Position numbers and translations under genes: made by a program
NCBI GenBank assembly: GCA_903903705.1
Contig: CAIUZU010000255.1
Span: 1 to 9,845, forward strand
Origin: an uncultured Helicobacteraceae bacterium
Lineage (GTDB): Bacteria > Campylobacterota > Campylobacteria > Campylobacterales > Sulfurimonadaceae
Direction of reading: 5' to 3'
Length of the DNA stretch: 9,845 nt
Notes under the pieces: generated by a model
Database searches by the model: none
The model's input: the letters and a program-made list of their open reading frames with translations, nothing else
Told to the model about the DNA's origin: nothing
Part shown: positions 3-9,816 of the stretch, one piece after another
How positions within the stretch are numbered: the first letter of the stretch is position 1
Layout: the number at the start of each line of letters is the position of its first letter

Positions 3-350
3 AGAAAAGGGTATTTATTGTATTCTGAAAACTTCCCATTTGCATCAAAATCACCAGATACAACCTATTCCATTAATATTCCGTTACAACCGATCGATAC
101 CGGTGCCAATATTATTTTACGCAACATTTTTTTCGAAACCGGCAAATATGACCTAAAACCCGCCTCGGCTGCAGAATTGGATAACTTAATCGACCTATTG
201 AAAGAAAATCCTACGGTCAACATTGAAATCAACGGATTTACTGATAACCAAGGTAAACCGTCAGACAACCTTATATTATCTGAAAACAGGGCAAAGGCAG
301 TAGTAAAATATTTAGTCCAAAAAATGGAAAAAGCGAAAAAGAAATTTTAA
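3..350 (+). CDS. OmpA-family C-terminal peptidoglycan-binding domain, truncated at both ends (possible pseudogene)
   Basis: The reading frame is open from the window edge, so the N-terminus is missing; the TTG at 18 is only an internal codon. What is visible is the OmpA/Pal/MotB C-terminal fold: a strand containing FFETGKYDL, the segment NIEINGFTDN, and the signature LSENRAKAVVKYL. In this family the Asp of FTDN (codon 243-245) and the Arg of ENRA (codon 288-290) bind the diaminopimelate of peptidoglycan. The style, including KGYLLYSENF before the domain, resembles Bacteroidota OmpA proteins rather than the downstream genes. The domain normally continues about 30 or more residues past this helix, but here it ends 11 residues later in a Lys-rich tail. 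An A6 run (319-324) sits where the ending departs from the family; one extra A would restore NGKSEKEILKYK, similar to the usual NGI-S-E-K-RLKYKG, for a short stretch only. It may be a broken gene, a sequencing frameshift or a junction. Confidence 0.7.
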   Translation, partial: RKGYLLYSENFPFASKSPDTTYSINIPLQPIDTGANIILRNIFFETGKYDLKPASAAELDNLIDLLKENPTVNIEINGFTDNQGKPSDNLILSENRAKAVVKYLVQKMEKAKKKF

Positions 351-684: not shown

Positions 685-715
685 TAACCTGGAAAGCGGG
701 GTTATGTTTTTTTTT
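685..715 (+). terminator. Probable Rho-independent terminator before the ParA-like gene
   Basis: TAACCT (685-690) pairs with GGGTTA (699-704), with one G-T wobble, around an 8-base loop. It is followed after two bases by a run of nine T (707-715). The stem is short, so strength is uncertain. It would insulate the operon from transcription coming from the left. A second GGGTTA copy at 667-672 could pair with the same TAACCT, which would exclude the terminator stem. Confidence 0.45.
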
Positions 716-758
716 AAATTTGATTTTGCATTTTTGCGAAAAGTGCAAAACAAAATTT
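716..758. promoter_or_regulatory. 43-base near-palindrome directly upstream of the ParA-like gene
   Basis: The sequence is symmetric about base 737: outer arms AAATTTGATTTTGCA (716-730) and TGCAAAACAAAATTT (744-758), with inner TTTT/AAAA at 732-735 and 739-742. Of 21 symmetric positions, 17 are Watson-Crick pairs, one is G-T and three mismatch. It ends 19 bases before the ATG at 778, so it lies where a promoter or operator of the first operon gene should be. Partition-type ATPase genes are often autoregulated at such sites, or flanked by their centromere. Which role applies here is inference. Confidence 0.5.
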
Positions 759-777
759 ATTTAAAAAGGAAAAAAAC

Positions 778-1575
778 ATGATCCATGTTACAGTTCAAAC
801 CAAGGGCGGCGTCGGCAAATCGACGATATCATCACAGCTACTCACATCGTATATCTATGTCAACACCAGCAAGCCAGTCCAATACTTTGAGATTGATGAC
901 CAAAACCAATCAATTAAGACATTATCATCTTCGACAATCATCGATGCAAAGCTCATAAACACCGAGAATCTGGCTAAATTCGCGGAGGAAAGCATCTTAT
1001 TTGAAGATGATGCGATCATCGATGTCGGCGGCAATTTGACCGCCACAATGTTTTTGCAAAAATTAAAAGTTTTAGGAGGCTTTCTTGCGCCCACTACTTA
1101 CTATATACCTTTAACCGACTCAGACCAAGATGCAATTAACGCAGCAAAAACTTTCAATCTTATACGGGAGTTCGACAAGAGCAGCAAGATTATCTATGTG
1201 CTCAACCGCTGCACTAATAAGAGCAACGCCGAACTGCTAGAGCGTGAGTTTATTAACTACTACGGCAGTGATGTTCTCGATGTGATACCTATCGTCAGAG
1301 ACGACAAGACGGAGATGATAGCGCTAAACCGCCACCACATATATGGTGTCATTGGCAAACTGCAAAAGACCATCATAGAGCTAGGACAAGACGATTACGA
1401 GGAGCCGTACAGAGCGGTAGCTCAAGAATTCTTTAAAGACAAGACAAATCAACCTTTGTATAAAGAGCTTCGTCGTTTAATGTTCCTAAAGGAGCAAACA
1501 ACGATTGCAAAGCAGATATTCAAAGATGAGTATCTTGAACTCTTTGCGCAAATCACGCAAATCACGAAGGCTTAG
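778..1575 (+). CDS. ParA/MinD-superfamily ATPase (StbB/TraL-like), conjugation or partition
   Basis: A 265-residue P-loop ATPase of the ParA/MinD type. The deviant Walker A motif KGGVGKST spans residues 9-16 with the signature lysine at K9 and the phosphate-binding K14. A FEIDDQNQS segment (acidic D40-D41) follows, and the second motif IIDVGG carries D82. The family uses ATP-driven dimerisation on DNA or membrane to position plasmids or machinery. No ParB-like gene with a helix-turn-helix follows; instead come two small helical proteins. That arrangement recalls StbB of R388 and TraL of RP4, ParA-like proteins encoded beside oriT, more than a standard parAB pair. Ribosome site AAAAAGGA lies at 763-770. 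The codons look slightly richer in G+C than in later genes. The ATPase fold is secure; the assignment to a conjugation-linked subgroup is inferred from context. Confidence 0.85.
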   Translation: MIHVTVQTKGGVGKSTISSQLLTSYIYVNTSKPVQYFEIDDQNQSIKTLSSSTIIDAKLINTENLAKFAEESILFEDDAIIDVGGNLTATMFLQKLKVLGGFLAPTTYYIPLTDSDQDAINAAKTFNLIREFDKSSKIIYVLNRCTNKSNAELLEREFINYYGSDVLDVIPIVRDDKTEMIALNRHHIYGVIGKLQKTIIELGQDDYEEPYRAVAQEFFKDKTNQPLYKELRRLMFLKEQTTIAKQIFKDEYLELFAQITQITKA

Positions 1576-1904: not shown

Positions 1905-2268
1905 CTTTACTTTCAAGCAGGCGGAGTCACTGCTTGAAGAGTTAAAAATCATAACTCCTACACTGGAAGACCTTCTTAAGAGGGCTAAGGAGATGAAAGA
2001 TACAAACAAAGAGGCTTTAACCCTTAACAAGGAGCTAGAAAGTAACTTGAAAGCGTTTGATTCAATTATCAAGCAATCAATCAACGGCGAGCTAGATAAA
2101 CGGCTCAAATCCCTTGAAAGATTTGACGAACTTGAAAACAGCGTTAATAGAAACATTGCGTACTTAAAAAAAGCGGCAGAAAAAACAACCACGCTTAAAA
2201 GCATGAACTGTTTTTTGCTTATGGCAGCAGTTGCTGCTGCTATTTTTTACGCTGCAAAATTTTTCTAA
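1891..2268 (+). CDS. Coiled-coil protein with C-terminal membrane anchor (TraM-like architecture)
   Basis: A 125-residue protein. Residues about 8-100 form a long charged helix with heptad spacing (SLLEELKIITPTLEDLLKRA and LESNLKAFDSII). The C-terminus CFLLMAAVAAAIFYAAKFF (about 107-125) is a single hydrophobic helix, so the protein should sit tail-anchored in the inner membrane with the coiled coil in the cytoplasm. The start at 1891 is supported by AGAGG about 10 bases upstream, inside the preceding gene. The layout, cytoplasmic coiled coil plus terminal membrane helix encoded just after a ParA-like ATPase, resembles the TraL-TraM pair of IncP plasmids. This is likeness of architecture only; I see no sequence match. 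It might tether the ATPase to the membrane. Confidence 0.7.
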   Translation: MASSDFTFKQAESLLEELKIITPTLEDLLKRAKEMKDTNKEALTLNKELESNLKAFDSIIKQSINGELDKRLKSLERFDELENSVNRNIAYLKKAAEKTTTLKSMNCFLLMAAVAAAIFYAAKFF

Positions 2269-2345
2269 AAATTATGAATATAGGTAGAGAGATAAAAAAT
2301 CAAAAATTTATCTCTCAAAAAAAACAAAACAAAGGATTTAACATG
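2267..2345 (+). repeat. Intergenic repeat module, copy 1 (hairpin plus ribosome site)
   Basis: The module starts with A5 then TTATGAATA (2272-2280). The perfect 10-bp hairpin GAGAGATAAA (2287-2296)/TTTATCTCTC (2307-2316) has loop AAATCAAAAA, and CAAAGGA follows at 2330-2336 before the ATG at 2343. Almost identical to copy 3 apart from a 5-base insertion and a few substitutions. The mini reading frame starting at ATG 2274 runs in frame into the coupling protein. No T-run follows, so it is not a terminator. Confidence 0.8.
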
Positions 2346-4013
2346 GGTTATAGAAATTTTCAAAACAGAGTAGTTAGGCTCAAACTGATGAGCGCATACA
2401 TAGCGAAGATCATATCGATCGCTTTTATTTTTCAAGCATTTGTTTTTGCATATTTGCTCACAAATAACTTAAAACAAGTCGAAGAATTCAACCTCAAAAC
2501 ATATGTAAAAAGCATATTCAAAGCTAAATCAGAGCCGTACATGACCATAAAACAAGAGCAAGAGGCAATATTAATAGAGAACGGAACGATACCGCTAGTG
2601 GTGAGTTTTGGTACATACTTCTTGATTTTTGGAGTTTTTTATCTCTTTACTAAAAGAGATGCGGAAGATCAAGCAAAGGAAGCAAGAGGCTCAAAGCTCG
2701 TCAAGCTTGATGAGCTTGTAAAGTCTCTAAAATCATATCAAAACAAATATATAACCATCGGCGGCTTTGATAAAAAGACTCACATCCTCACTGAGGGGGA
2801 TAATATATCGCTAAAACTGGACAAAACTAAAGAGATGAACTACAGAGAGCATAGTATTGAGATACCCGAGAAGTTTGAATATATGCACTTTTGCGTAATA
2901 GGCAAAAGCGGTAGCGGTAAGACCTCACTCATCAATCCGGTTGTAGAACAAATACGAGAGCGTGGCGACAGAATGATCATCCATGATTATAAAGGCGATT
3001 TTACTAAAAACTTTTGCAAAATCGGTAAAGATTTGATTTTTAATCCTACCACCCCCGAAAGCTGCTTAAAATGGAGCGTTTTTAACGATATTGACAACAA
3101 AGAAGACATGAGAGCGATAGCTAACTCTCTGATACCTGCCCCAGCATCACATGAGGATCCGTTTTTCAGAAACAGTGCTAGAGATATCTTTACCGGGTGT
3201 CTAATGTCACTATTTGAGAGTGGTAAAAAACTCAACAAAGACATCTACGAGCTTGTTACAAGCAATAATAAAGCGATTGAAGAAGCTCTAAGATCTTCGC
3301 CTGCCACCGTCAAATATGCGCATATATTCGACCCGTCAAATCAAAAGACTCTGAATTCTGTTCTTTCGGTTTTTAGGACTTATACCTCATGTTTTGAGTA
3401 CCTGGCGGATATTGACGGAGATTTTAGCGTTCGCGAGTGGGTTAAAAACTCCTCAAAAAACATTTTTGTGCAAAACCGAGAAAACATCAAAGAGGCGATA
3501 TCTCCGGCTCTTACGCTCTTTATCGACACTATTAGTAGGGAGCTGCTGAGTCATGACGACAGGGAAGACAAGACAATATTTGTTTTAGACGAATTCGGGC
3601 GACTCAACAGGATGAGCAGCGTTCTAGACTTGCTTACTAATGGCAGAAGCAAAGGGGCGAGCGTGTATATCTTAGCTCAAGAATTCGCGCAAATAGAAGC
3701 AAAGTACGGTAAAGAAGGCAGAAAAACTATCGTAAACGCCTGCTCAAACCAAATCTATTTTGGCATAAATGATGCAGAAAGCGCAAAAGAGATCTCTGCA
3801 CAAATCGGAGAAGAAGAGAAGACCCAAGAGGATGAGTCTATACATCATAAAACTCAAGTAGAAGATATGGAGGGCTTGAATGTGAGAAAACACAAAAACA
3901 TCAAAAGCGTAGTCTTGCCGAGCGAGATACTTAATCTCAAAGAGCGAGAGTTCTACATTAAGCTCAACGGGCTTGACTGGACTAAATCAAAAGTATTCAT
4001 TAAAAAATTATGA
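2343..4013 (+). CDS. VirD4/TraD-family type IV coupling protein (first of two)
   Basis: A 556-residue inner-membrane ATPase that in this family links the relaxosome or protein substrates to the secretion channel. Two N-terminal membrane helices (about 20-40 and 83-103) flank a short periplasmic loop. The Walker A is GKSGSGKT (187-194, K193), the Walker B is IFVLDEFGR (D416-E417), and the downstream GRSKG (434-438) and Q446 match the conserved RecA-fold core of TrwB/TraD proteins. I chose ATG 2343 over the in-frame ATG 2274. The later start has CAAAGGA just upstream, the extra 23 codons would be translated repeat-module hairpin, and with this start K193 falls at the same residue number as in the second coupling protein. 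The gene ends in ATGA, overlapping the start of module copy 2. TrwB has 507 residues and VirD4 about 650, so the size is normal. Confidence 0.9.
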   Translation: MGYRNFQNRVVRLKLMSAYIAKIISIAFIFQAFVFAYLLTNNLKQVEEFNLKTYVKSIFKAKSEPYMTIKQEQEAILIENGTIPLVVSFGTYFLIFGVFYLFTKRDAEDQAKEARGSKLVKLDELVKSLKSYQNKYITIGGFDKKTHILTEGDNISLKLDKTKEMNYREHSIEIPEKFEYMHFCVIGKSGSGKTSLINPVVEQIRERGDRMIIHDYKGDFTKNFCKIGKDLIFNPTTPESCLKWSVFNDIDNKEDMRAIANSLIPAPASHEDPFFRNSARDIFTGCLMSLFESGKKLNKDIYELVTSNNKAIEEALRSSPATVKYAHIFDPSNQKTLNSVLSVFRTYTSCFEYLADIDGDFSVREWVKNSSKNIFVQNRENIKEAISPALTLFIDTISRELLSHDDREDKTIFVLDEFGRLNRMSSVLDLLTNGRSKGASVYILAQEFAQIEAKYGKEGRKTIVNACSNQIYFGINDAESAKEISAQIGEEEKTQEDESIHHKTQVEDMEGLNVRKHKNIKSVVLPSEILNLKEREFYIKLNGLDWTKSKVFIKKL

Positions 4014-4073
4014 ATATAAGTAGGAGAGATAAAAACTATCTCTCCTAAAAAAATCAAAGGAGATAAAAAAATG
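4002..4073 (+). repeat. Intergenic repeat module, copy 2 (variant hairpin with compensated arms)
   Basis: A6-TTATGAATA (motif 4008-4016) overlaps the stop of the first coupling protein. The hairpin is TAGGAGAGATA (4021-4031)/TATCTCTCCTA (4037-4047), 11 perfect pairs around a 5-base loop AAAAC. Relative to copies 1 and 3, a G inserted in the left arm is matched by a C inserted in the right arm. CAAAGGA lies at 4055-4061 before ATG 4071. A 12-codon mini frame (4010-4048) starts at the ATGA overlap. Confidence 0.8.
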
Positions 4074-4319
4074 GAAAACAATCACGACCCGCACAAAGTC
4101 CAAGACCCATATAAGGTCAAAGATCCTTATGCAAATAATCACGACCCCTACAAGGTGCATGACCCATATAAGCAATCTAATGACCCCTACAAGACGACCC
4201 ACGACCCGTATGCGAGACGAGACGAGTATAAAAATAAACCAAAAAGCAAAGGCAGCAACCTTTTTACGCTTGTGATTTTGGCGGCTTTATTGGGCGTTTT
4301 TTTGGCGCTTAGATTTTAA
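4071..4319 (+). CDS. Tail-anchored DPY[K/A]-repeat protein
   Basis: An 82-residue protein of unknown function. Residues 6-54 are eight short repeats: DPHK (6), DPYK (12), DPYA (18), DPYK (25), DPYK (31), DPYK (38), DPYA (45) and DEYK (51), spaced six or seven residues apart and separated by His, Val, Asn and Lys. After a basic linker (KNKPKSKGS), residues about 63-80 (NLFTLVILAALLGVFLAL) form one membrane helix, so the repeat part should face the cytoplasm. Aromatic residues in regular array on a disordered arm suggest a multivalent binding surface. The same motif occurs in the N-terminus of the 660-residue protein encoded at 5269, so both may bind the same partner. The ribosome site is CAAAGGAGA at 4055. 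I know of no named family. Confidence 0.8.
   Translation: MENNHDPHKVQDPYKVKDPYANNHDPYKVHDPYKQSNDPYKTTHDPYARRDEYKNKPKSKGSNLFTLVILAALLGVFLALRF
4086..4232 (+). repeat. Tandem repeat encoding DPY[K/A] units
   Basis: Eight units, mostly of the form GACCC(A/C/G)TA(T/C)AAG or GATCCTTATGCA, at 18- or 21-base spacing. Third positions vary (CCA, CCC, CCG, CCT for Pro), which says the peptide rather than the DNA is what is kept. Confidence 0.75.
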
Positions 4320-4350
4320 TCGAAAAATTTTTATAAAAGAGAGAAATAAA

Positions 4351-4665
4351 ATGAGTATAACAAAAACAGCAGAGGCGGTTAAATACTTTGAGTTTGCGAT
4401 AGAAGAGATGAAAGAGGCTCTTAAAGTCAAAATAGAGCAAGATGAAGAGTATCTTAAGTTTAGGCAAGAGCTTTATGAGAAGTATCACTGTAGTTTTATT
4501 TATTTTAGTGACACGATGGAGTTTGAATTTTATAGCGCGGACAAAGGAGTTAATACTTTTTTCACGATTACAAAAAGCGGAGAGATAAAGTTCAATACTG
4601 ATAACACTTTTAACGGTATCAAAGATGTTGCAAAAGAGGCTCAAAGAATAGTCTCTAAATTATGA
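4351..4665 (+). CDS. Small protein of unknown function
   Basis: A 104-residue soluble protein without membrane helices. Residues about 5-45 are an amphipathic, Glu/Lys-rich helix (YFEFAIEEMKEALKVKIEQD). The middle (about 48-90) alternates hydrophobic and polar residues as strands do (SFIYFSDTMEFEFYS, FFTITKSGEIKFN), and a C-terminal helix ends in RIVSKL. This suggests a compact alpha-beta domain. The start has only a GAGAG-type ribosome site, about 31 bases after the previous stop, and that gap has just a degenerate trace of the repeat module. The stop overlaps the TTATGAATA of module copy 3. Context makes it a conjugation accessory; no function can be read from it. Confidence 0.7.
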   Translation: MSITKTAEAVKYFEFAIEEMKEALKVKIEQDEEYLKFRQELYEKYHCSFIYFSDTMEFEFYSADKGVNTFFTITKSGEIKFNTDNTFNGIKDVAKEAQRIVSKL

Positions 4666-4728
4666 ATACATGTAGAGAGATAAAAAATCAAAAATTTATC
4701 TCTCAAAAAAAACAAAGGATTTAACATG
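4657..4728 (+). repeat. Intergenic repeat module, copy 3 (hairpin plus ribosome site)
   Basis: TTATGAATA (4660-4668) overlaps the preceding stop. The hairpin is GAGAGATAAA (4675-4684)/TTTATCTCTC (4695-4704), perfect over 10 pairs with loop AAATCAAAAA as in copy 1. CAAAGGA is at 4713-4719 and the next ATG at 4726. The mini frame from ATG 4662 encodes MNTCREIKNQKFISQKKQRI and stops at 4724, one base before the next start codon. Confidence 0.8.
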
Positions 4729-5055
4729 GTACTACAGTTCACAATCGAAGATTTAGATTTACAAGTTGCGCTTACGACAGGCGCTGAAGCGGCAAACATG
4801 GAAGTTAACGAGTTTGCAAAAACAATGCTTTCTTACTCTTTTAACACTTCTCAAGCAATGCTAGGCGTGCAACAGGTAGCGACATTTCTAGAGGGTACTT
4901 TATTGCAAAAATTGACAGAAATACAAATTAATAGTTATGCACTCAGACATCAAGTGACTAATCTGCATGCGGATCTATTGGGTGAACACGAGCAAAGAGC
5001 TTTAGACATAGCGGTTGAAGCTAATGAACTAGCTTCAGAAGCTGCATTAAATTAG
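4726..5055 (+). CDS. Putative ribbon-helix-helix-like small protein
   Basis: A 109-residue soluble protein. The first 40 residues have the pattern of Arc/MetJ ribbon-helix-helix domains: a short strand (VLQFTIED), a helix (LDLQVALTTGAEAANM) and, after a turn, a second helix (EVNEFAKTMLSYSF), where the EVNEF segment parallels the S-x-NEF/EYI motif of that fold. The rest is helical and Gln/Leu-rich (GVQQVATFLEGTLLQKL, ALDIAVEANELASEAALN) and may make oligomers. Such proteins often act as relaxosome accessory factors or operon repressors in conjugative elements, which would fit here. The assignment rests on pattern only; the strand lacks the usual basic residues, which weakens a DNA-binding reading. 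The ribosome site comes from module copy 3. Confidence 0.55.
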   Translation: MVLQFTIEDLDLQVALTTGAEAANMEVNEFAKTMLSYSFNTSQAMLGVQQVATFLEGTLLQKLTEIQINSYALRHQVTNLHADLLGEHEQRALDIAVEANELASEAALN

Positions 5056-5066
5056 GGAGGTGTGAG

Positions 5067-5291
5067 ATGTATAACAATCATCAAAAACGAGAAGTAGAGC
5101 TAAATAAAAAAGACTGGGTAATCATACACCTATTAAATATTTGTCTTTTGGCTCTCTTATTTGCACTTTTACCGGGCGAAGAGGATTTAAAAAAGAATGA
5201 CCCTGAAGGCTATGAGTTTGTAAAAAAATTTGAAGAAAAAAGGGATGCGGTTTTAAAAGGGGCAGTAAATGCAGTCATTGGCAAAGAGTGA
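5067..5291 (+). CDS. Small single-helix membrane protein of unknown function
   Basis: A 74-residue protein. A basic N-terminus (NNHQKREVELNKKD) precedes one hydrophobic helix at about 17-36 (WVIIHLLNICLLALLFALLP), followed by an acidic, charged helical tail (EEDLKKNDPEGYEFVKKFEEKRDAVLK). Charges suggest an N-in, C-out inner-membrane orientation. A strong ribosome site GGGAGG (5055-5060) overlaps the stop of the gene before, and its own 3' end overlaps the next gene by 23 bases, so translation is probably coupled on both sides. There is no recognised family. Confidence 0.7.
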   Translation: MYNNHQKREVELNKKDWVIIHLLNICLLALLFALLPGEEDLKKNDPEGYEFVKKFEEKRDAVLKGAVNAVIGKE

Positions 5292-7251
5292 TAACCACAA
5301 CGAAAACATGACAGAGGAGATGGAGAGGCTCAAACAAGAAAATGAGCAGCTCAGAAATCAACTACAATCTAAAGAGGACCCATATAAACAAAAAAGAGAT
5401 CCGTATGCGGTAAAACCTGATCCGTATGCGGTAAATAAAAACTCTTACAATAGTGCAATGGAGAGGCGCAACGATGCAGAACATGTACAAATGGGTTCAG
5501 CTATCGGTATTGTAGGCGCTCTTGCTATGCCCGTACAAGCAAAAGCGTTAGGTGTTGTTGCCGCAAAAGGGTTAGCGGGAATGGGTGCCACTTCTTTAGC
5601 TGGTATGGCAGCAGTACCGGGCGGAGCAGTATTGTTAGGTATAGGTGCAGCTGCTATTGCAGGCGGACTAGGTGTCATTGCGCTAAAATCAGTTTATAAA
5701 GGCATAAAAAGCAATATGTCTGCTCTTAAAAATATGCCTAAATTAAACTACAGCAATAATCCCGACTATAAATCTTCCACAAGATATGAGCCTGAGAGAA
5801 CTAATCCTAATTCAAAAGGCGCATATCAAGAGCAGGTAAAACAAAAGGATAAAATCGGCGGACATATCCAAACCCTCAAAGATAAATTCAAAGAAGGCAA
5901 GGATATAACCAATGATATCAGAGATATTCAAGGACTAAAAAGTTTAAGTGGCTCTCAAAAAAAAGAGTTAAATAGACTACAAAGTGACAATATCATCAGA
6001 AATGCTGCAAACGATAAAGACAATCCTAGCCGTTTAGCTGATGCTCCGGCAATTTCGAAAGAGTTGAACAAGCACCACGAGCAGCATAATATCCCACACA
6101 AGGAGATGATGGAGATTAGAAAAAATGTTCTCTCAAGATTAGGCGAACATTACGACAATCAAAACATTAACCGCAACGGTAAAATTATGGATAGTGATGC
6201 AATTCCCGGTATAAAAGCGCAAGAAGCTCAAGTGTCTCAAGCAGACAAACAACAAAAAGAGTTCAAGCCAATGAACATGGATCAATCAAATTTAGATTAC
6301 TCAAAAAGTTCATCTACCGTAAAAGAAGCAGCACAAACTACATTTAACAACAGCTACGGCAAAGACACTAAAGCGCAAGAGGCTCAAGTTAATCAAGAGC
6401 AAAAAGAGGTTACGCCGAAAGCGCAAGAAGCTCAAGACATGAAACAATCTTCTAATTCGGTTTCAAACAGTGAGGCTACTCCAAACAGGACTCAAGCAGA
6501 GTGGAATCCCCAAGCTTACAAAGAGATAGAAGAGTTAAAAAAAGTTAAAGGCGAAAGAGACGGTAGGGATATTAATCCGGATGAAGCCAAAAAAGCAGCT
6601 TTAGAGGCGGCAAACAAAAGAAACGAAGCAGTAGAAAAAAAGGAGGATAGAAGCAAGATAGTAGCTACCCAGCAAGCCTTTATGAACGCTCAAGCCGTCC
6701 AAAGAAACGGTGTGAGTATGAGTTCTTTGCAGAGTTACGCAGAAAAAACTCTCGTAAATGAAGATATGGATGCAAAAGCCGTTCAAAAGTTTGTCAATAA
6801 CACTAAAGAGCATGCTAATAAATTAGCAGATATAGGTATCTTGCAAAAAAGTGAAAATGGAGATTTTAGTTTTGTTGATAAAAAGGCAAAAGAAATTCTG
6901 CATGAAAACGGGGATAAGGGATTTGATAAGATTTATGAGGCTAATTTACAATCATACAAAGGCGCAGTAAAAGACAAAGCATCTACTCATGATATAAAGC
7001 TAGATAATGAAAAGGCAAAAGAGACTCAAACGGAAAAACAGCCAAAAACTAAACAATCCGCCGCAACGGTTCAAAAGGCTCAAGCAAATGTATCGGCTCA
7101 TACTAAAAACATGGGAAAGCCTATTGCCGGTTCGTCAAATCAAAAGCCTGCACCGGCTCAAGCACCTCAAAAGCAAAGCCAAAATCAAAATCAAAATTCA
7201 TCAAGCTCTTCAAAGCAGGCTAAAGCTGCAGGAATAGAGAGAGGCAGATAA
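5269..7251 (+). CDS. 660-residue DPY-repeat protein with hydrophobic Gly/Ala segment and disordered tail
   Basis: Order of parts: a short coiled coil (about 14-35, EEMERLKQENEQLRNQLQ); three DPY units exactly seven residues apart (37, 44, 51) plus a degenerate fourth; a Gly/Ala-rich hydrophobic stretch (75-141), probably membrane-inserting, with glycine-zipper spacing; a charged, helical and partly low-complexity centre with three KAQEAQ repeats (316, 368, 384); a more ordered block (about 475-570) including LADIGILQKSENGDFSFVDKK, which could be a winged-helix-like element; then a Gln/Ser-rich tail ending in IERGR. No catalytic motif is visible. The start at ATG 5269 has AAAGGGG upstream; the ATGs at 5308 and 5320 lack good sites. 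It overlaps the previous gene by 23 bases and the next by one. It may be a membrane-associated accessory or a secreted substrate of the coupling protein encoded downstream. Confidence 0.75.
   Translation: MQSLAKSDNHNENMTEEMERLKQENEQLRNQLQSKEDPYKQKRDPYAVKPDPYAVNKNSYNSAMERRNDAEHVQMGSAIGIVGALAMPVQAKALGVVAAKGLAGMGATSLAGMAAVPGGAVLLGIGAAAIAGGLGVIALKSVYKGIKSNMSALKNMPKLNYSNNPDYKSSTRYEPERTNPNSKGAYQEQVKQKDKIGGHIQTLKDKFKEGKDITNDIRDIQGLKSLSGSQKKELNRLQSDNIIRNAANDKDNPSRLADAPAISKELNKHHEQHNIPHKEMMEIRKNVLSRLGEHYDNQNINRNGKIMDSDAIPGIKAQEAQVSQADKQQKEFKPMNMDQSNLDYSKSSSTVKEAAQTTFNNSYGKDTKAQEAQVNQEQKEVTPKAQEAQDMKQSSNSVSNSEATPNRTQAEWNPQAYKEIEELKKVKGERDGRDINPDEAKKAALEAANKRNEAVEKKEDRSKIVATQQAFMNAQAVQRNGVSMSSLQSYAEKTLVNEDMDAKAVQKFVNNTKEHANKLADIGILQKSENGDFSFVDKKAKEILHENGDKGFDKIYEANLQSYKGAVKDKASTHDIKLDNEKAKETQTEKQPKTKQSAATVQKAQANVSAHTKNMGKPIAGSSNQKPAPAQAPQKQSQNQNQNSSSSSKQAKAAGIERGR
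5377..5430 (+). repeat. Heptad-spaced DPY[K/A] repeats in the 660-residue protein
   Basis: DPYK and two DPYA units begin at residues 37, 44 and 51, giving a regular seven-residue period; KNSY at 57-60 is a decayed fourth. The motif is the same as in the tail-anchored protein encoded at 4071-4319, about 1.1 kb upstream. Confidence 0.7.
6214..6435 (+). repeat. Three KAQEAQ repeats
   Basis: The codons for KAQEAQ recur at 6214-6231, 6370-6387 and 6418-6435 with almost the same DNA (AAAGCGCAAGAAGCTCAA, with one GAG in copy two), followed in the first two by V-x-Q and KE-rich sequence. This looks like internal duplication within a disordered region. Confidence 0.6.
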
Positions 7252-7460
7252 TGAAATCGGCAGAAAACACAGCGGTTGACAATGTAAAAAGTCATACCCA
7301 AAAGCTAGGTAAGCAGCTTGAAAAAAACAATGAAAACGGTAACAAAGCTCTTTTAAGTGGGAAGGACGGAGGGCTTTACAGCGGTGGTAATAATGGTGTT
7401 TATATGAGTGAAAAAGATATTGCTCAAGAGTCTAAAAGCTCTACCGAGAGAGGCAGATAA
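7251..7460 (+). CDS. Small hydrophilic protein with ERGR C-terminus
   Basis: A 69-residue, Lys/Asn/Gly/Ser-rich protein with no membrane helix. The N-terminal third is helical (VKSHTQKLGKQLEK), the middle is Gly-rich (GKDGGLYSGGNNGVYMS) and the end is ESKSSTERGR. The last four residues equal those of the 660-residue protein just upstream. In both, the codons GAGAGAGGCAGATAATG also supply the ribosome site and the overlapping start of the next gene (TAATG). So the tail may be a shared recognition signal, a by-product of the ribosome site, or a duplication remnant. It sits between that protein and the second coupling ATPase, overlapping each by one base. There is no known family. Confidence 0.65.
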   Translation: MKSAENTAVDNVKSHTQKLGKQLEKNNENGNKALLSGKDGGLYSGGNNGVYMSEKDIAQESKSSTERGR

Positions 7461-9325
7461 TGGAAAAGCTAAGAACGGATATTGAAAAAAATATCAACTC
7501 CAAAACCTACAGAGCCTGGGAAAAATTAGAGCATGAATCACAAATGCGGTTTAAAGCGTGGGGTATTGAGCAGAGTATATACTTTGCTCCTACGATTGCC
7601 GTCATGTTCGTATATTTTTTATTTGGACTTATACAGGATATGGATCTTCCTTACAATCAAAGTTTTGATTTTTTTAGTGCTACATTTTTTTATATTCTTA
7701 TTATCACAGCGGCTATAAATCTATTTCTTTTGAAATATTTCAAGCCTCTCTTTGATGATATCATGAAAAAACACTCTCAAGATCTGAGTGAAGATGTTTA
7801 TCAAAAGGGTGCAAAGTTCGCTAATACTAAAGAGTATAATCAGACCATAGAGCACTTCTTAAAAACAGAATTTGAGATAAGCAAAAGCAGTTCAACTTTA
7901 GAGACTTTTAAAGTACCTCTGCAAAAGCTCTCACACGACGATGATAAGAGATTTGAAGTAGAGCCGCAGGATATGAAGATACCTCGCATCTCACTTGCAA
8001 CCGGTTTATGCATTATGGGTTCACCGGGTAAAGGTAAATCAGTTCTCATTAATCGCATAATTAATCAAATCCCAAATAATGCAAATACCAAAACCGTAAT
8101 CATCGATGTCAAGGGTGAATTTGTAGAGAAGTTTTACAACCCTTTGACGGATTTTATCTTATGCCCAGCAGACCTAAGAAGTGTTAAATTCGAGCTATAC
8201 AAATTCATTAAAACTCATGTGGATGCAGGAGTTATAGCAGATATATTAATCCCGGACGATAAAAACACACCAGACCTGCATTGGTCCAGTGCAGCAAGAG
8301 CAGTCATGGAGGGTATCTTAGTCAAAGCAGCTAAAAGAAAATTATCCAATAAAGAGATATTTGCTATGGTTAGCGATGCAAAACTGCTCAACGAGCTTAA
8401 AAACGACGAAGATATCAGAAATATTGTATACAACTTTCTAAGAGGCGATGTTACTGAGGATGCACTCTCGAGAGAAACTGCTTCAATCCTCTCTACACTT
8501 GCAAGAAAAGCTAAACCATTGCAATATCTCAAATATGCGGATGATTTAGAGGGTAATGATTTCATTGAGTTTAAAAGCTGGCTGGGCGACGGCAAAGGCG
8601 GCAAACTCTTTTTACTTGCTACAGATAATTTAAGCCGTGTATTTAGTCCTCTTTACGGTGTTATTACAAGTTATCTCATCTCTTCCATTCTTGATGGGGC
8701 GGATAACCGTGATTTAAATTTTTATTTCATTCTCGACGAGCTGCCTCGTCTAGGTAAAGCTTTAGGCGAAAATCTTGAAAAAGCTTTGGCGGTAGGACGC
8801 TCAAAAGGCATAAAGATCATCATGGCGATGCAGTCATACAGCCAGATAAAAAAAGAGTTCGGAGAGAAAGAAGCGGAGAGCATATTAGACACTACCAATA
8901 GCTATGTGATATTTCAGAACAATATCGGAGCGGAGTTTTTGGAAAAATACTTTGGTAAAACAACAGTGCTTAGAAATGATGAGAGTTTCAGTTTTGGTAT
9001 GGACTCCATGGCGGATAGGGTAACGGTATCTCGTAAAGAGGTAAAAGAGGCTTTAATCGATAGTGCGGAGATAAGCAGGCTCAATATATTTGAGTTTTAC
9101 GCAAAGATAGAGGGATGCGCTGATGTGCTTAAGGGCCGATTGGCTGCAGAGTTTATACCTAGTAAAAATATACCTAAGTATCTTGAAAATCCAAAAATGA
9201 CAATTGAGGCGCTTGAAAAAGAAGTCAGATATATAATCAAGTATATTGAAAACAATTTTATCAACACCACGAATGTACATGAGAGAGGTTTGCTTAACAA
9301 GCCTACCGTAAAAATCATGATGTAA
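7460..9325 (+). CDS. VirD4/TraD-family type IV coupling protein (second of two)
   Basis: A 621-residue inner-membrane ATPase. Two membrane helices (about 40-58 and 73-91) are followed by a cytoplasmic RecA-like domain: Walker A GSPGKGKS (187-194, K193), an IIDVKGEFVEKFYNP strand-turn of the kind seen in TraD/TraG proteins, Walker B FILDELPRLG (D426-E427), then GRSKG (446-450) and Q458. The spacing from GRSKG to this Gln is 12 residues, as in the first coupling protein. The two share core motifs but differ widely elsewhere, and this one lies closer in style to TraD/TraG (DELPRLG). Start ATG 7460 overlaps the previous stop (TAATG) with AGAGAGG upstream. It probably recruits substrates to the type IV channel; why one operon has two is discussed under findings. 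Confidence 0.9.
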   Translation: MEKLRTDIEKNINSKTYRAWEKLEHESQMRFKAWGIEQSIYFAPTIAVMFVYFLFGLIQDMDLPYNQSFDFFSATFFYILIITAAINLFLLKYFKPLFDDIMKKHSQDLSEDVYQKGAKFANTKEYNQTIEHFLKTEFEISKSSSTLETFKVPLQKLSHDDDKRFEVEPQDMKIPRISLATGLCIMGSPGKGKSVLINRIINQIPNNANTKTVIIDVKGEFVEKFYNPLTDFILCPADLRSVKFELYKFIKTHVDAGVIADILIPDDKNTPDLHWSSAARAVMEGILVKAAKRKLSNKEIFAMVSDAKLLNELKNDEDIRNIVYNFLRGDVTEDALSRETASILSTLARKAKPLQYLKYADDLEGNDFIEFKSWLGDGKGGKLFLLATDNLSRVFSPLYGVITSYLISSILDGADNRDLNFYFILDELPRLGKALGENLEKALAVGRSKGIKIIMAMQSYSQIKKEFGEKEAESILDTTNSYVIFQNNIGAEFLEKYFGKTTVLRNDESFSFGMDSMADRVTVSRKEVKEALIDSAEISRLNIFEFYAKIEGCADVLKGRLAAEFIPSKNIPKYLENPKMTIEALEKEVRYIIKYIENNFINTTNVHERGLLNKPTVKIMM

Positions 9326-9328
9326 TTC

Positions 9329-9380
9329 AAAAAATTATGAATATATACGAAACCACAAACAAAGGAGGTAAAACAAAATG
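9329..9380 (+). repeat. Intergenic repeat module, copy 4 (no hairpin)
   Basis: A6-TTATGAATA (motif 9335-9343) follows the stop of the second coupling protein by a few bases, but the hairpin arms are absent. The ribosome site CAAAGGAGGT (9360-9369) is the strongest in the window. The mini frame beginning at 9337 encodes MNIYETTNKGGKTK and ends in ATGA, overlapping the ATG at 9378. Confidence 0.65.
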
Positions 9381-9692
9381 AAATTTGGATTTTTTGGAGG
9401 TGCGATACTTCTGATGCTAACGCTTGTGTTTAGTTACATAGCTATTCAAAATAACAAAATAGCAAAAGAGATAACGCTTAAATCCTTTGGGCTTGATAAG
9501 CCAAAAGCTCAAGCACTACAACAGCAGCCGGCAGTAAATGACAACAATGCTTCAATGGTTCAAGACACAAATGAAACTAAAAGAGAGAACACGCCTAAAG
9601 TTGAAACGAAAGAAGTAGAAGCAAAAGATGATAAATGGCAAAAGTTTGATGAAAAGTTTAAAGACTTTGATAAGAAGTTTGAAAATTTCTGA
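9378..9692 (+). CDS. Membrane-anchored periplasmic coiled-coil protein, unknown function
   Basis: A 104-residue protein. An N-terminal hydrophobic helix (about 4-24, GFFGGAILLMLTLVFSYIAI) without an evident cleavage or lipobox site suggests a signal anchor with the rest in the periplasm. A Gln/Asn/Lys-rich linker follows, and the C-terminus (about 84-104) repeats a KF-x-x-F pattern (KFDEKFKDFDKKFENF), an amphipathic helix with Phe at heptad-like positions. The strong ribosome site CAAAGGAGGT precedes it. It lies between the second coupling protein and another gene, so it could be a secretion-channel accessory, but I recognise no family. Confidence 0.7.
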   Translation: MKFGFFGGAILLMLTLVFSYIAIQNNKIAKEITLKSFGLDKPKAQALQQQPAVNDNNASMVQDTNETKRENTPKVETKEVEAKDDKWQKFDEKFKDFDKKFENF

Positions 9693-9816
9693 AAAATTAT
9701 GAATACATGTAGAGAGACAAAAAACAGATTTTATCTCTCCGGAATTAAGCAGAGGTTGTGCTTTTTTAAGCACTTGAAATTTTAACACAAAAACAAAAAA
9801 CAAAGGATTCAAAATG
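9692..9816 (+). repeat. Intergenic repeat module, copy 5 (longer leader)
   Basis: A5-TTATGAATA (motif 9697-9705) starts just after the previous stop. The hairpin GAGAGACAAAA (9712-9722)/TTTTATCTCTC (9729-9739) pairs except for one C-A mismatch. An extra stretch of about 45 bases with its own small hairpin separates it from CAAAGGA (9801-9807) and ATG 9814. The mini frame from 9699 has 28 codons, stops at 9785 and contains the codons for CFFKH over the second hairpin. Confidence 0.7.
9758..9773 (+). promoter_or_regulatory. Small hairpin in the leader of the last gene
   Basis: GTGCTT (9758-9763) and AAGCAC (9768-9773) form a 6-bp stem with loop TTTT. AAGCA at 9747-9751 can pair instead with TGCTT at 9759-9763, giving a mutually exclusive fold. 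No strong T-run follows (only TTGAAATTTT), so termination here is doubtful; a translational or processing role is possible. Confidence 0.35.

What the first reader, a model, noticed from the sequence alone, without database searches (positions are those of the whole stretch)
2267..9816. Five-copy intergenic hairpin module at gene boundaries, with a compensated arm change
Seen directly: TTATGAATA recurs at 2272, 4008, 4660, 9335 and 9697, each at the 3' end of one gene and just before the next. Copies 1, 2, 3 and 5 carry a hairpin built on GAGAGATA/TATCTCTC, and all five have CAAAGGA before the next ATG. Copies 1 and 3 are almost the same over about 70 bases. Copy 2 has an inserted G in the left arm and a matching C in the right arm, so pairing is kept. 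No T-run follows, so these are not terminators. Inference: a regulon of post-transcriptional elements (RNase processing, stability or ribosome-site control), sites for a plasmid-encoded binding protein, or duplicated cassettes that help rearrange the operon. I know of no named element of this form.
Basis: partly seen in the sequence, partly recalled or inferred. Interest (0 to 1): 0.75.

Follow-up and report, generated by a model that had tools for sequence, protein, structure and literature searches.

The report
Private promoter boxes with leader hairpins
A family of conjugative DNA elements in Campylobacterota carries, in front of many of its genes, a repeated short box (TG-A/T-ATATA), often followed by a small hairpin, that is almost absent from the sampled host chromosomes; the box likely works as the element's own kind of promoter, and the hairpin is predicted to sit at the 5' end of each messenger RNA.

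Summary
The five-copy module is real and reaches beyond the window. The constant part is not the hairpin but a motif before it, AAAWWT[A/C]TG[A/T]ATATA-RR-YARRRGA, found between genes in 12 of 15 element sources scanned. Eight element stretches (116 kb) hold 41 strong hits; two host chromosome samples (329 kb) hold 1, not upstream of a gene. Of 50 sites, 45 are followed on the same strand by an SD and start codon, against 6 of 50 antisense. Some sites face away from a divergent neighbour. Host-like extended -10 promoters are rarer in element leaders: clearly for TGNTANAAT, not significantly for exact TGNTATAAT. In L056, the closest relative found, a TTGACT/TATAAT promoter stands where others have the box. 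20 of 48 leaders fold better than z -1.5, against 32 of 300 chromosomal leaders; in 17 of these 20 the hairpin starts just after the box, and arm sequences differ between copies. I read this as an element-private promoter class with optional 5'-terminal hairpins, forming a regulon. Its reader is unknown; a ribbon-helix-helix-like protein is the best candidate. Without transcription data the promoter reading remains an inference.

The parts
2267..2345 (+). module copy 1, in front of VirD4-like gene 1: box TGAATATA 2275-2282, hairpin arms 2287-2296 / 2307-2316, SD word CAAAGGA 2330-2336, ATG 2343
   Evidence: fold z -7.4
4003..4073 (+). module copy 2, stop codon of VirD4-1 overlaps the box; box 4011-4018, arms 4022-4031 / 4037-4046, CAAAGGA 4055-4061, ATG 4071
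   Evidence: fold z -5.2
4655..4728 (+). module copy 3, in front of the RHH-like gene; box TGAATACA 4663-4670, arms 4675-4684 / 4695-4704, CAAAGGA 4713-4719, ATG 4726
   Evidence: fold z -5.5
9330..9380 (+). module copy 4, no hairpin; box TGAATATA 9338-9345, CAAAGGA 9360-9366, ATG 9378
   Evidence: z +1.0
9692..9816 (+). module copy 5; box TGAATACA 9700-9707, arms 9712-9722 / 9729-9739 with one C.A mismatch, a second small hairpin 9758-9763 / 9768-9773 (read by eye), CAAAGGA 9801-9807, ATG 9814
   Evidence: fold z only -1.1
4726..5055 (+). 109-aa ribbon-helix-helix-like protein, candidate binder of the box (inferred)
   Evidence: gene preceded by the box in 8 of 10 elements
2343..4013 (+). VirD4/TrwB-like coupling ATPase 1
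   Evidence: Pfam TrwB_AAD_bind E 7.7e-87
7460..9325 (+). VirD4/TrwB-like coupling ATPase 2, used to find related elements
   Evidence: Pfam TrwB_AAD_bind E 2.7e-60
778..1575 (+). ParA-like ATPase; no box in front of it in the window
   Evidence: Pfam CbiA E 4.4e-8

Best explanation
The module is a repeated, element-private box (TG-A/T-ATATA, followed by a purine-rich stretch) standing in front of gene blocks of a family of conjugative elements, and it likely acts as a -10-like promoter element, with the hairpin predicted to form the very 5' end of the transcript. Shown: the box is concentrated in the elements, oriented with the downstream gene, sits in the larger gaps, and occurs at gene starts whose upstream neighbour is divergent; host-like TGNTANAAT boxes are rarer in element leaders. 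Shown: where a hairpin is present it mostly starts 4-6 nt after the box, and arm sequences differ between copies while staying largely paired. Inferred: transcription starts a few bases after the box, so each gene block gets its own promoter; hairpins at the 5' end slow mRNA decay or shield the leader; copies without a hairpin put the ribosome-binding site near the 5' end. Inferred: the box departs from the sigma70 -10 consensus, so a factor brought by the element (best candidate the RHH-like protein) would be needed to read or to repress it, which would make the copies one regulon. The letters at two variable positions are nearly constant within an element and differ between elements, as expected if the sites change together with a factor.
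For: PWM score 15 or more: 41 hits in 116 kb of eight element stretches, 0 in 129 kb of the window's own genome and 1 in 200 kb of G124, none upstream of a gene; at the looser score 12 the chromosomes have 4 hits, one upstream of a gene. The PWM was trained on 30 element sites; L076 was not among them and gives five hits, four between genes. Box pattern in 27 of 117 element leaders (3 on the reverse strand) and 1 of 298 chromosomal leaders (0 reverse). 45 of 50 sites are followed by SD plus start codon within 150 nt in sense, 6 of 50 in antisense. Box-bearing co-directional gaps have a median of 65 nt (n 23), others 5 nt (n 63). Divergent contexts: L049 5825 and L050 15346. Sigma70-like promoter close to 4 of 48 boxes against 19 of 30 chromosomal divergent starts. 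TGNTANAAT in 3 of 117 element leaders and 42 of 298 chromosomal ones (reverse strand 4 and 13), p 3e-4. L056 has no box and has TTGACT-18-TATAAT in front of its RHH gene. Leader fold z below -1.5 in 20 of 48 against 32 of 300, Fisher p 8e-7, Mann-Whitney p 0.002. Box letters uniform within elements apart from 3 of 51 sites. C. jejuni promoters lack a clear -35 box and use TGxTATAAT (PMC3656092, passages).
Against: No TSS, RNA-seq or binding data. Aligned as a sigma70 hexamer the box lacks the conserved final T, so host RpoD alone should read it poorly, and no sigma factor or polymerase of the element was found. In both divergent regions there are sigma70-like hexamers further upstream of the box (three candidates in L049 about 115-200 nt upstream; in L050 the best is TTGAAA-19-TATTAT about 70 nt upstream), so a promoter elsewhere with the box inside the leader is not excluded there. 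Exact TGNTATAAT differs little: 3 of 117 against 21 of 298, p 0.10, and plain TATAAT has no strand preference in either set. L050 12892 has its SD directly at the box, which fits a -10 element badly. 14 of 63 box-less gaps are 41 nt or longer. Sites are not independent: the three L049 hairpins have the same arms, window copies 1 and 3 are near copies, and L050 and L079 are nearly one element. Five of 50 sites have no gene called after them, one of them because the contig ends; L078 6770 faces a convergent gene. L056 keeps the RHH-like gene without a box, and no box precedes it in L077. G004 and G069 elements (L051, L052) have no intergenic box. Fold matches to Arc and CopG have E-values of 3 or more.
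Confidence: 0.56

Rival explanations
1. The box is an operator of an element-encoded DNA-binding protein (RHH-like or other), overlapping weak promoters; the repeated module is a repressor regulon like that of ArtA on pSK41.
For: The RHH-like gene is preceded by a box in 8 of 10 elements, as in autoregulation. Palindromic forms exist in G183, e.g. TGAATATATATATAATATATATTCA at L077 6850, and the PWM has a partial TG-N8-YA dyad. Variable letters are nearly uniform within an element. Arc, CopG, AtaR, MatP and CdbA are among the fold matches.
Against: An operator alone does not explain the lower number of host-like promoters or the conserved purine stretch after the box. L056 keeps the RHH-like gene but has no box. 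The RHH assignment rests on weak matches only.
Confidence: 0.2
2. A purely RNA-level element: the box and hairpin act in the mRNA as a processing, stability or ribosome-site control module, and promoters lie elsewhere.
For: Box, hairpin, SD and start codon follow at short, regular distances; arms differ between copies yet pair; most copies lie between co-directional genes; sigma70-like hexamers lie further upstream in the two divergent regions.
Against: 28 of 48 copies do not reach fold z -1.5. Sigma70-like promoters are close to only 4 of 48 boxes, and L056 has a promoter in place of the box.
Confidence: 0.18
3. Recombination cassettes: copies are repeats by which genes were duplicated or shuffled within the element.
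For: Gene order differs between elements, e.g. the small FGFFGG membrane-protein gene lies after coupling ATPase 2 in the window and before coupling ATPase 1 in L049.
Against: Hairpin arms differ within an element (L076) while the box is constant, which duplication alone does not give. The box follows gene starts where no gene precedes in the same direction. Not tested further: no exchange footprints were searched for.
Confidence: 0.05

Closest known systems
SetCD regulon of SXT/R391 ICEs (PMC4344509, passages read)
   Same: One element-wide motif in front of many conjugation operons; promoters without a recognisable -35 and with a poorly conserved -10; motif logos differ subtly between related elements
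   Different: SetCD sites overlap or lie just upstream of the -35 region; here the conserved box sits where a -10 would be, and no FlhDC-like activator was seen (none was searched for by profile); no hairpin is mentioned in the passages read
ArtA of Staphylococcus plasmid pSK41 (PMC6540685, passages read)
   Same: RHH protein with six binding sites on one conjugative plasmid, its own promoter among them; here an RHH-like gene is preceded by the motif
   Different: Binding not tested here; a leader hairpin is often part of the module
Extended -10 promoters of Epsilonproteobacteria, TGxTATAAT (PMC3656092, passages read)
   Same: TG followed by an AT-rich hexamer, no clear -35; the same paper describes a promoter-like box inside each C. 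jejuni CRISPR repeat
   Different: The hexamer does not match TATAAT, the purine stretch after it is conserved, and the box is almost absent from the sampled host chromosomes
5' stem-loops that stabilise mRNA, e.g. H. pylori vacA (review PMC7509114, passages read)
   Same: A stem-loop in the 5' leader
   Different: Here one design recurs in front of many genes of one element with different arm sequences; stability not tested
T4 late promoters, TATAAATA (recalled; only a search listing seen)
   Same: A -10-only octamer read with a special factor
   Different: No gp55-like factor was looked for; the sequence differs

Membership tests
Host sigma70 extended -10 promoter | TGNTATAAT-like hexamer with the final T | tested here: not met
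   the box is TG[A/T]ATATA in the 30 training sites, with T or C at one position; read as a hexamer it does not match TATAAT
Host sigma70 extended -10 promoter | lies a short distance upstream of genes on the same strand | tested here: met
   45 of 50 sense, 6 of 50 antisense
Host sigma70 extended -10 promoter | used across the host chromosome | tested here: not met
   box in 1 of 298 chromosomal leaders, 27 of 117 element leaders
T7-like single-subunit RNA polymerase promoter | a cognate polymerase encoded by the element or genome | tested here: not met
   PF00940 in 1 of 10 genomes, on another contig, G131:C47; several of these genomes are incomplete
Alternative sigma factor regulon | an extra sigma70-family gene | tested here: not met
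   PF04542: two genes in 9 of 10 genomes and one in G183; taken as RpoD and FliA from their lengths and general knowledge; sigma54 was not searched
ArtA-like RHH regulon | RHH protein of the element | tested here: inconclusive
   weak matches to NikA-like, ParD, Arc and CopG
ArtA-like RHH regulon | protein binds the repeated sites | not testable with these tools
   needs binding assays
SetCD/AcaCD-type activator regulon | FlhDC-like activator | not tested
   no profile search was made; none was recognised among the shared gene groups
Intrinsic terminator | hairpin followed by a run of T | tested here: not met
   read by eye: A-rich sequence or other non-T sequence and an SD follow the four window hairpins; no terminator scan was run
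Known Rfam RNA family | match at or above the gathering score | tested here: not met
   one match at E 0.61, below its gathering score, at 2090-2273 on the minus strand

The most novel reading that the evidence does not exclude
The elements carry their own transcription-specificity factor that directs RNA polymerase to a -10-only box unknown to the host, so that the whole conjugation programme runs on a private promoter code whose letters drift together with the factor from element to element, and every transcript begins with a built-in 5' hairpin cap or a 5'-terminal ribosome-binding site.
Probability: 0.28. Interest if true: 0.82.

Novelty: new variant of a known kind. Interest (0 to 1): 0.6.

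Why it matters
If true, a conjugative element family keeps its genes on a promoter type that the host chromosome hardly uses, which would let it be silent or active as a block and keep its programme when it moves between distant Campylobacterota. It offers a concrete, testable motif for finding such elements in metagenomes and for hunting the factor that reads it. The per-element variants (ATGAA, ATGTA, CTGAA, GTGAA) are a natural experiment on how a site set and its reader change together.

Tried and rejected
Leader peptide: the window and L049 boxes contain ATG, but nearly all boxes of L050, L055 and L059 have CTG at that place, so an ATG start is not the conserved feature. T7-like polymerase and extra sigma factors: searched, not found in the elements. 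Rfam: none above threshold. Phage origin: two pattern scans of viral contigs gave 0 and 3 stretches; the three have one hit each, antisense inside long genes, and look like chance. Two protein searches of viral contigs gave no relative. Order-wide pattern search: the five hits with 0 or 1 mismatch to TTCTGAATATANRYAAGAGAG were in G306 and G124; 47 of 398 genomes have some hit at up to 2 mismatches, many probably background, as the reversed-pattern control also hits. The looser pattern with 3 mismatches hit 180 of 398 genomes, much like its control, and its list was cut. An SD/anti-SD switch was considered for copy 2 (right arm TATCTCTCCT could pair with AGGAGATA of the SD) and dropped, by eye, because the L049 arms do not fit it. 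The resemblance of TGTATATA to the eukaryotic Pumilio site is recalled only and taken as coincidence.
Full report
Observation. The nine-base word occurs five times at the stated places, with 0.21 expected. The window is a whole 9,845-base contig of an assembly of 429 contigs, 79% complete. Relatives found in titled genomes are named Sulfurimonas, Campylobacterales, Campylobacteraceae and, once, Candidatus Gracilibacteria. The window encodes a ParA-like ATPase and two VirD4/TrwB-like coupling ATPases, so I take it as part of a conjugative element. The five copies fill all five large gaps (52-121 nt) and none of the seven small ones. Copies 1, 2, 3 and 5 have a hairpin, copy 5 with one C.A mismatch and a fold z of only -1.1; copy 4 has none.

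Relatives. With the five-row ATPase alignment, 9 of 398 genomes of the order matched at E 1e-60, the window's own included. A TrwC-type relaxase is present in L049. Matches in other genomes were not followed up.

The conserved part. In L049 the gene boundaries hold AAAAATATGTATATAGGTAAGAAGAT..., in L050 and L059 TTTCTGAATATARGYAAGAGA.... In 30 aligned sites the shared part is AAAWWT[A/C]TG[A/T]ATATA followed by RR-YARRRGA; the six outermost bases of the 12 scored upstream of the box carry little information, and further upstream was not scored. Scanned by source, 12 of 15 have at least one intergenic hit of score 13 or more; L056, G004 (L051) and G069 (L052) have none. G004 and G069 share only coupling-ATPase matches with the window. 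At score 15 or more there are 41 hits in 116 kb of eight element stretches against 0 in 129 kb and 1 in 200 kb of two host chromosomes, none of the latter upstream of a gene. The PWM was trained on these elements; L076 was held out and gives five hits, four between genes. A plain 8-mer count shows the same: TTCTGAAT, picked from the top 25 list, is in 17 of 117 element leaders and 0 of 298 chromosomal ones; most of that list is A/T-rich words common to both.

Where it sits. 45 of 50 sites are followed within 150 nt by an SD and start codon on the same strand against 6 of 50 in antisense. The five without are window 9700 (gene cut by the contig end), L049 5708, L050 12166, L054 10053 and L078 6770. 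Of 51 sites one hit inside a gene (L076 4428) was left out. Co-directional gaps with a box have a median of 65 nt (n 23), those without 5 nt (n 63), though 14 of the 63 are 41 nt or longer. Some boxes stand where the upstream gene runs the other way: L049 5825 (244 nt from it) and L050 15346 (188 nt), both in front of the first coupling ATPase. There the box follows the gene start, not a stop codon.

Why a promoter. Passages of PMC3656092 report an extended -10 box, TGxTATAAT, and no clear -35 for about 89% of 8,019 C. jejuni starts. TGNTANAAT is in 42 of 298 chromosomal leaders (13 on the reverse strand) and 3 of 117 element leaders (4 on the reverse strand), p 3e-4; the box is in 1 of 298 and 27 of 117 (reverse 0 and 3). 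For the exact TGNTATAAT the contrast is weak, 21 of 298 against 3 of 117, p 0.10, and plain TATAAT shows no strand preference. A -10/-35-like pair was seen close to 4 of 48 boxes and 19 of 30 chromosomal divergent starts; the windows (90 and 100 nt) were anchored differently. Against this, both divergent regions hold sigma70-like hexamers further upstream of the box, the best being TTGAAA-19-TATTAT about 70 nt before the L050 box. L056, whose second coupling ATPase is the closest found (64%), lacks the box, and in front of its RHH-like gene stands TTGACT-18-TATAAT, read by eye. In 8 of 10 elements that gene has the box; in L077 it has none and only a short gap. The L056 exchange is the best single argument that the box does a promoter's work. 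It is one locus on one 4.8-kb contig.

The hairpin. Of 48 intergenic sites, 20 have a leader fold with z below -1.5, against 32 of 300 chromosomal leaders (Fisher p 8e-7, Mann-Whitney p 0.002). The box leaders start at the box and the chromosomal ones end at the start codon, with 200 and 60 shuffles. Sites within an element are not independent. In 17 of these 20 the hairpin starts just after the box; in L049 5708, L064 7585 and L055 15375 it lies elsewhere. For one search I chose 20 hairpins near the box: those 17 plus window 9700, L050 15346 and L054 5360. They have 14 distinct arm pairs, 3 of 163 pairs non-standard, and in 17 of 20 the first pair lies 12-14 nt from the T of the box. The arms come from predicted folds, so the pairing count is partly by construction; window 9700, L079 191 and L054 10053 each show one broken pair. 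If transcription starts about 7 nt after the hexamer, the hairpin begins at the 5' end of the RNA (inference). A stem-loop in the H. pylori vacA leader confers stability (review PMC7509114, passages). Several copies without a hairpin have the SD within 3-25 nt of the box.

The factor. No T7-like polymerase was found except in 1 of 10 genomes, on another contig, and genomes have two sigma70-type genes, one in G183. The only DNA-binding-like protein shared by most elements is the 109-aa protein at 4726-5055 (10 of 13 element pieces). Its model (pLDDT 78, pTM 0.42) has an extended start, a helix, a turn and long helices. Fold matches include Arc, CopG, AtaR, MatP and CdbA, none significant; sequence-profile matches are weak. 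Box letters are uniform within an element (ATGAA, ATGTA, CTGAA or GTGAA) apart from 3 of 51 sites. Palindromic forms in G183 would suit a dimeric reader. All of this is circumstantial.

Comparison. Element-wide motifs in front of conjugation operons are known: SetCD sites in SXT/R391 (nine major peaks; PMC4344509, passages) and six ArtA sites on pSK41 (PMC6540685, passages). What differs here is the place of the box at the -10 position, its near absence from the host, and the optional hairpin at a near-fixed distance. The listings showed no paper that I recognised as describing this module; only the passages named above were read, and most subscription papers are not held.

Change after checking. 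Confidence in the promoter reading was lowered from 0.60 to 0.56 and the novel case from 0.30 to 0.28, because the upstream sigma70-like hexamers in the two divergent regions and the weak contrast for exact TGNTATAAT had been left out; the RNA-level rival was raised from 0.15 to 0.18.

Noticed in passing
window 700-775: Upstream of the ParA-like gene there is no box but a different hairpin (TTTTGCA...TGCAAAA), read by eye.
   Followed up: no
window 9758-9773: Copy 5 carries a second small hairpin GTGCTT/AAGCAC between the first hairpin and the SD.
   Followed up: no
window 3-350: The contig begins with the C-terminal end of an OmpA-family protein, followed by about 430 bases without a recognised gene before ParA.
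   Followed up: no
L077 6840-6875 and L078 6765-6830: In G183 the box occurs as a long palindrome TGAATATATATATAATATATATTCA and in a second copy before a convergent gene, which would suit a dimeric DNA-binding protein.
   Followed up: partly
G131:C47:3204-4721: A T7-type RNA polymerase domain in an open frame of 1102 aa lies on another contig of the G131 genome.
   Followed up: no
window 5269-7251 and 4071-4319: Two proteins share repeated DPYK/DPYA units (for example DPYKVKDPYANNHDPYK).
   Followed up: no
L056 326-1019: A duplicated gene start (LMRHTFKIDGILVNPKLPQNFDF twice) with a run of N in the first copy.
   Followed up: no
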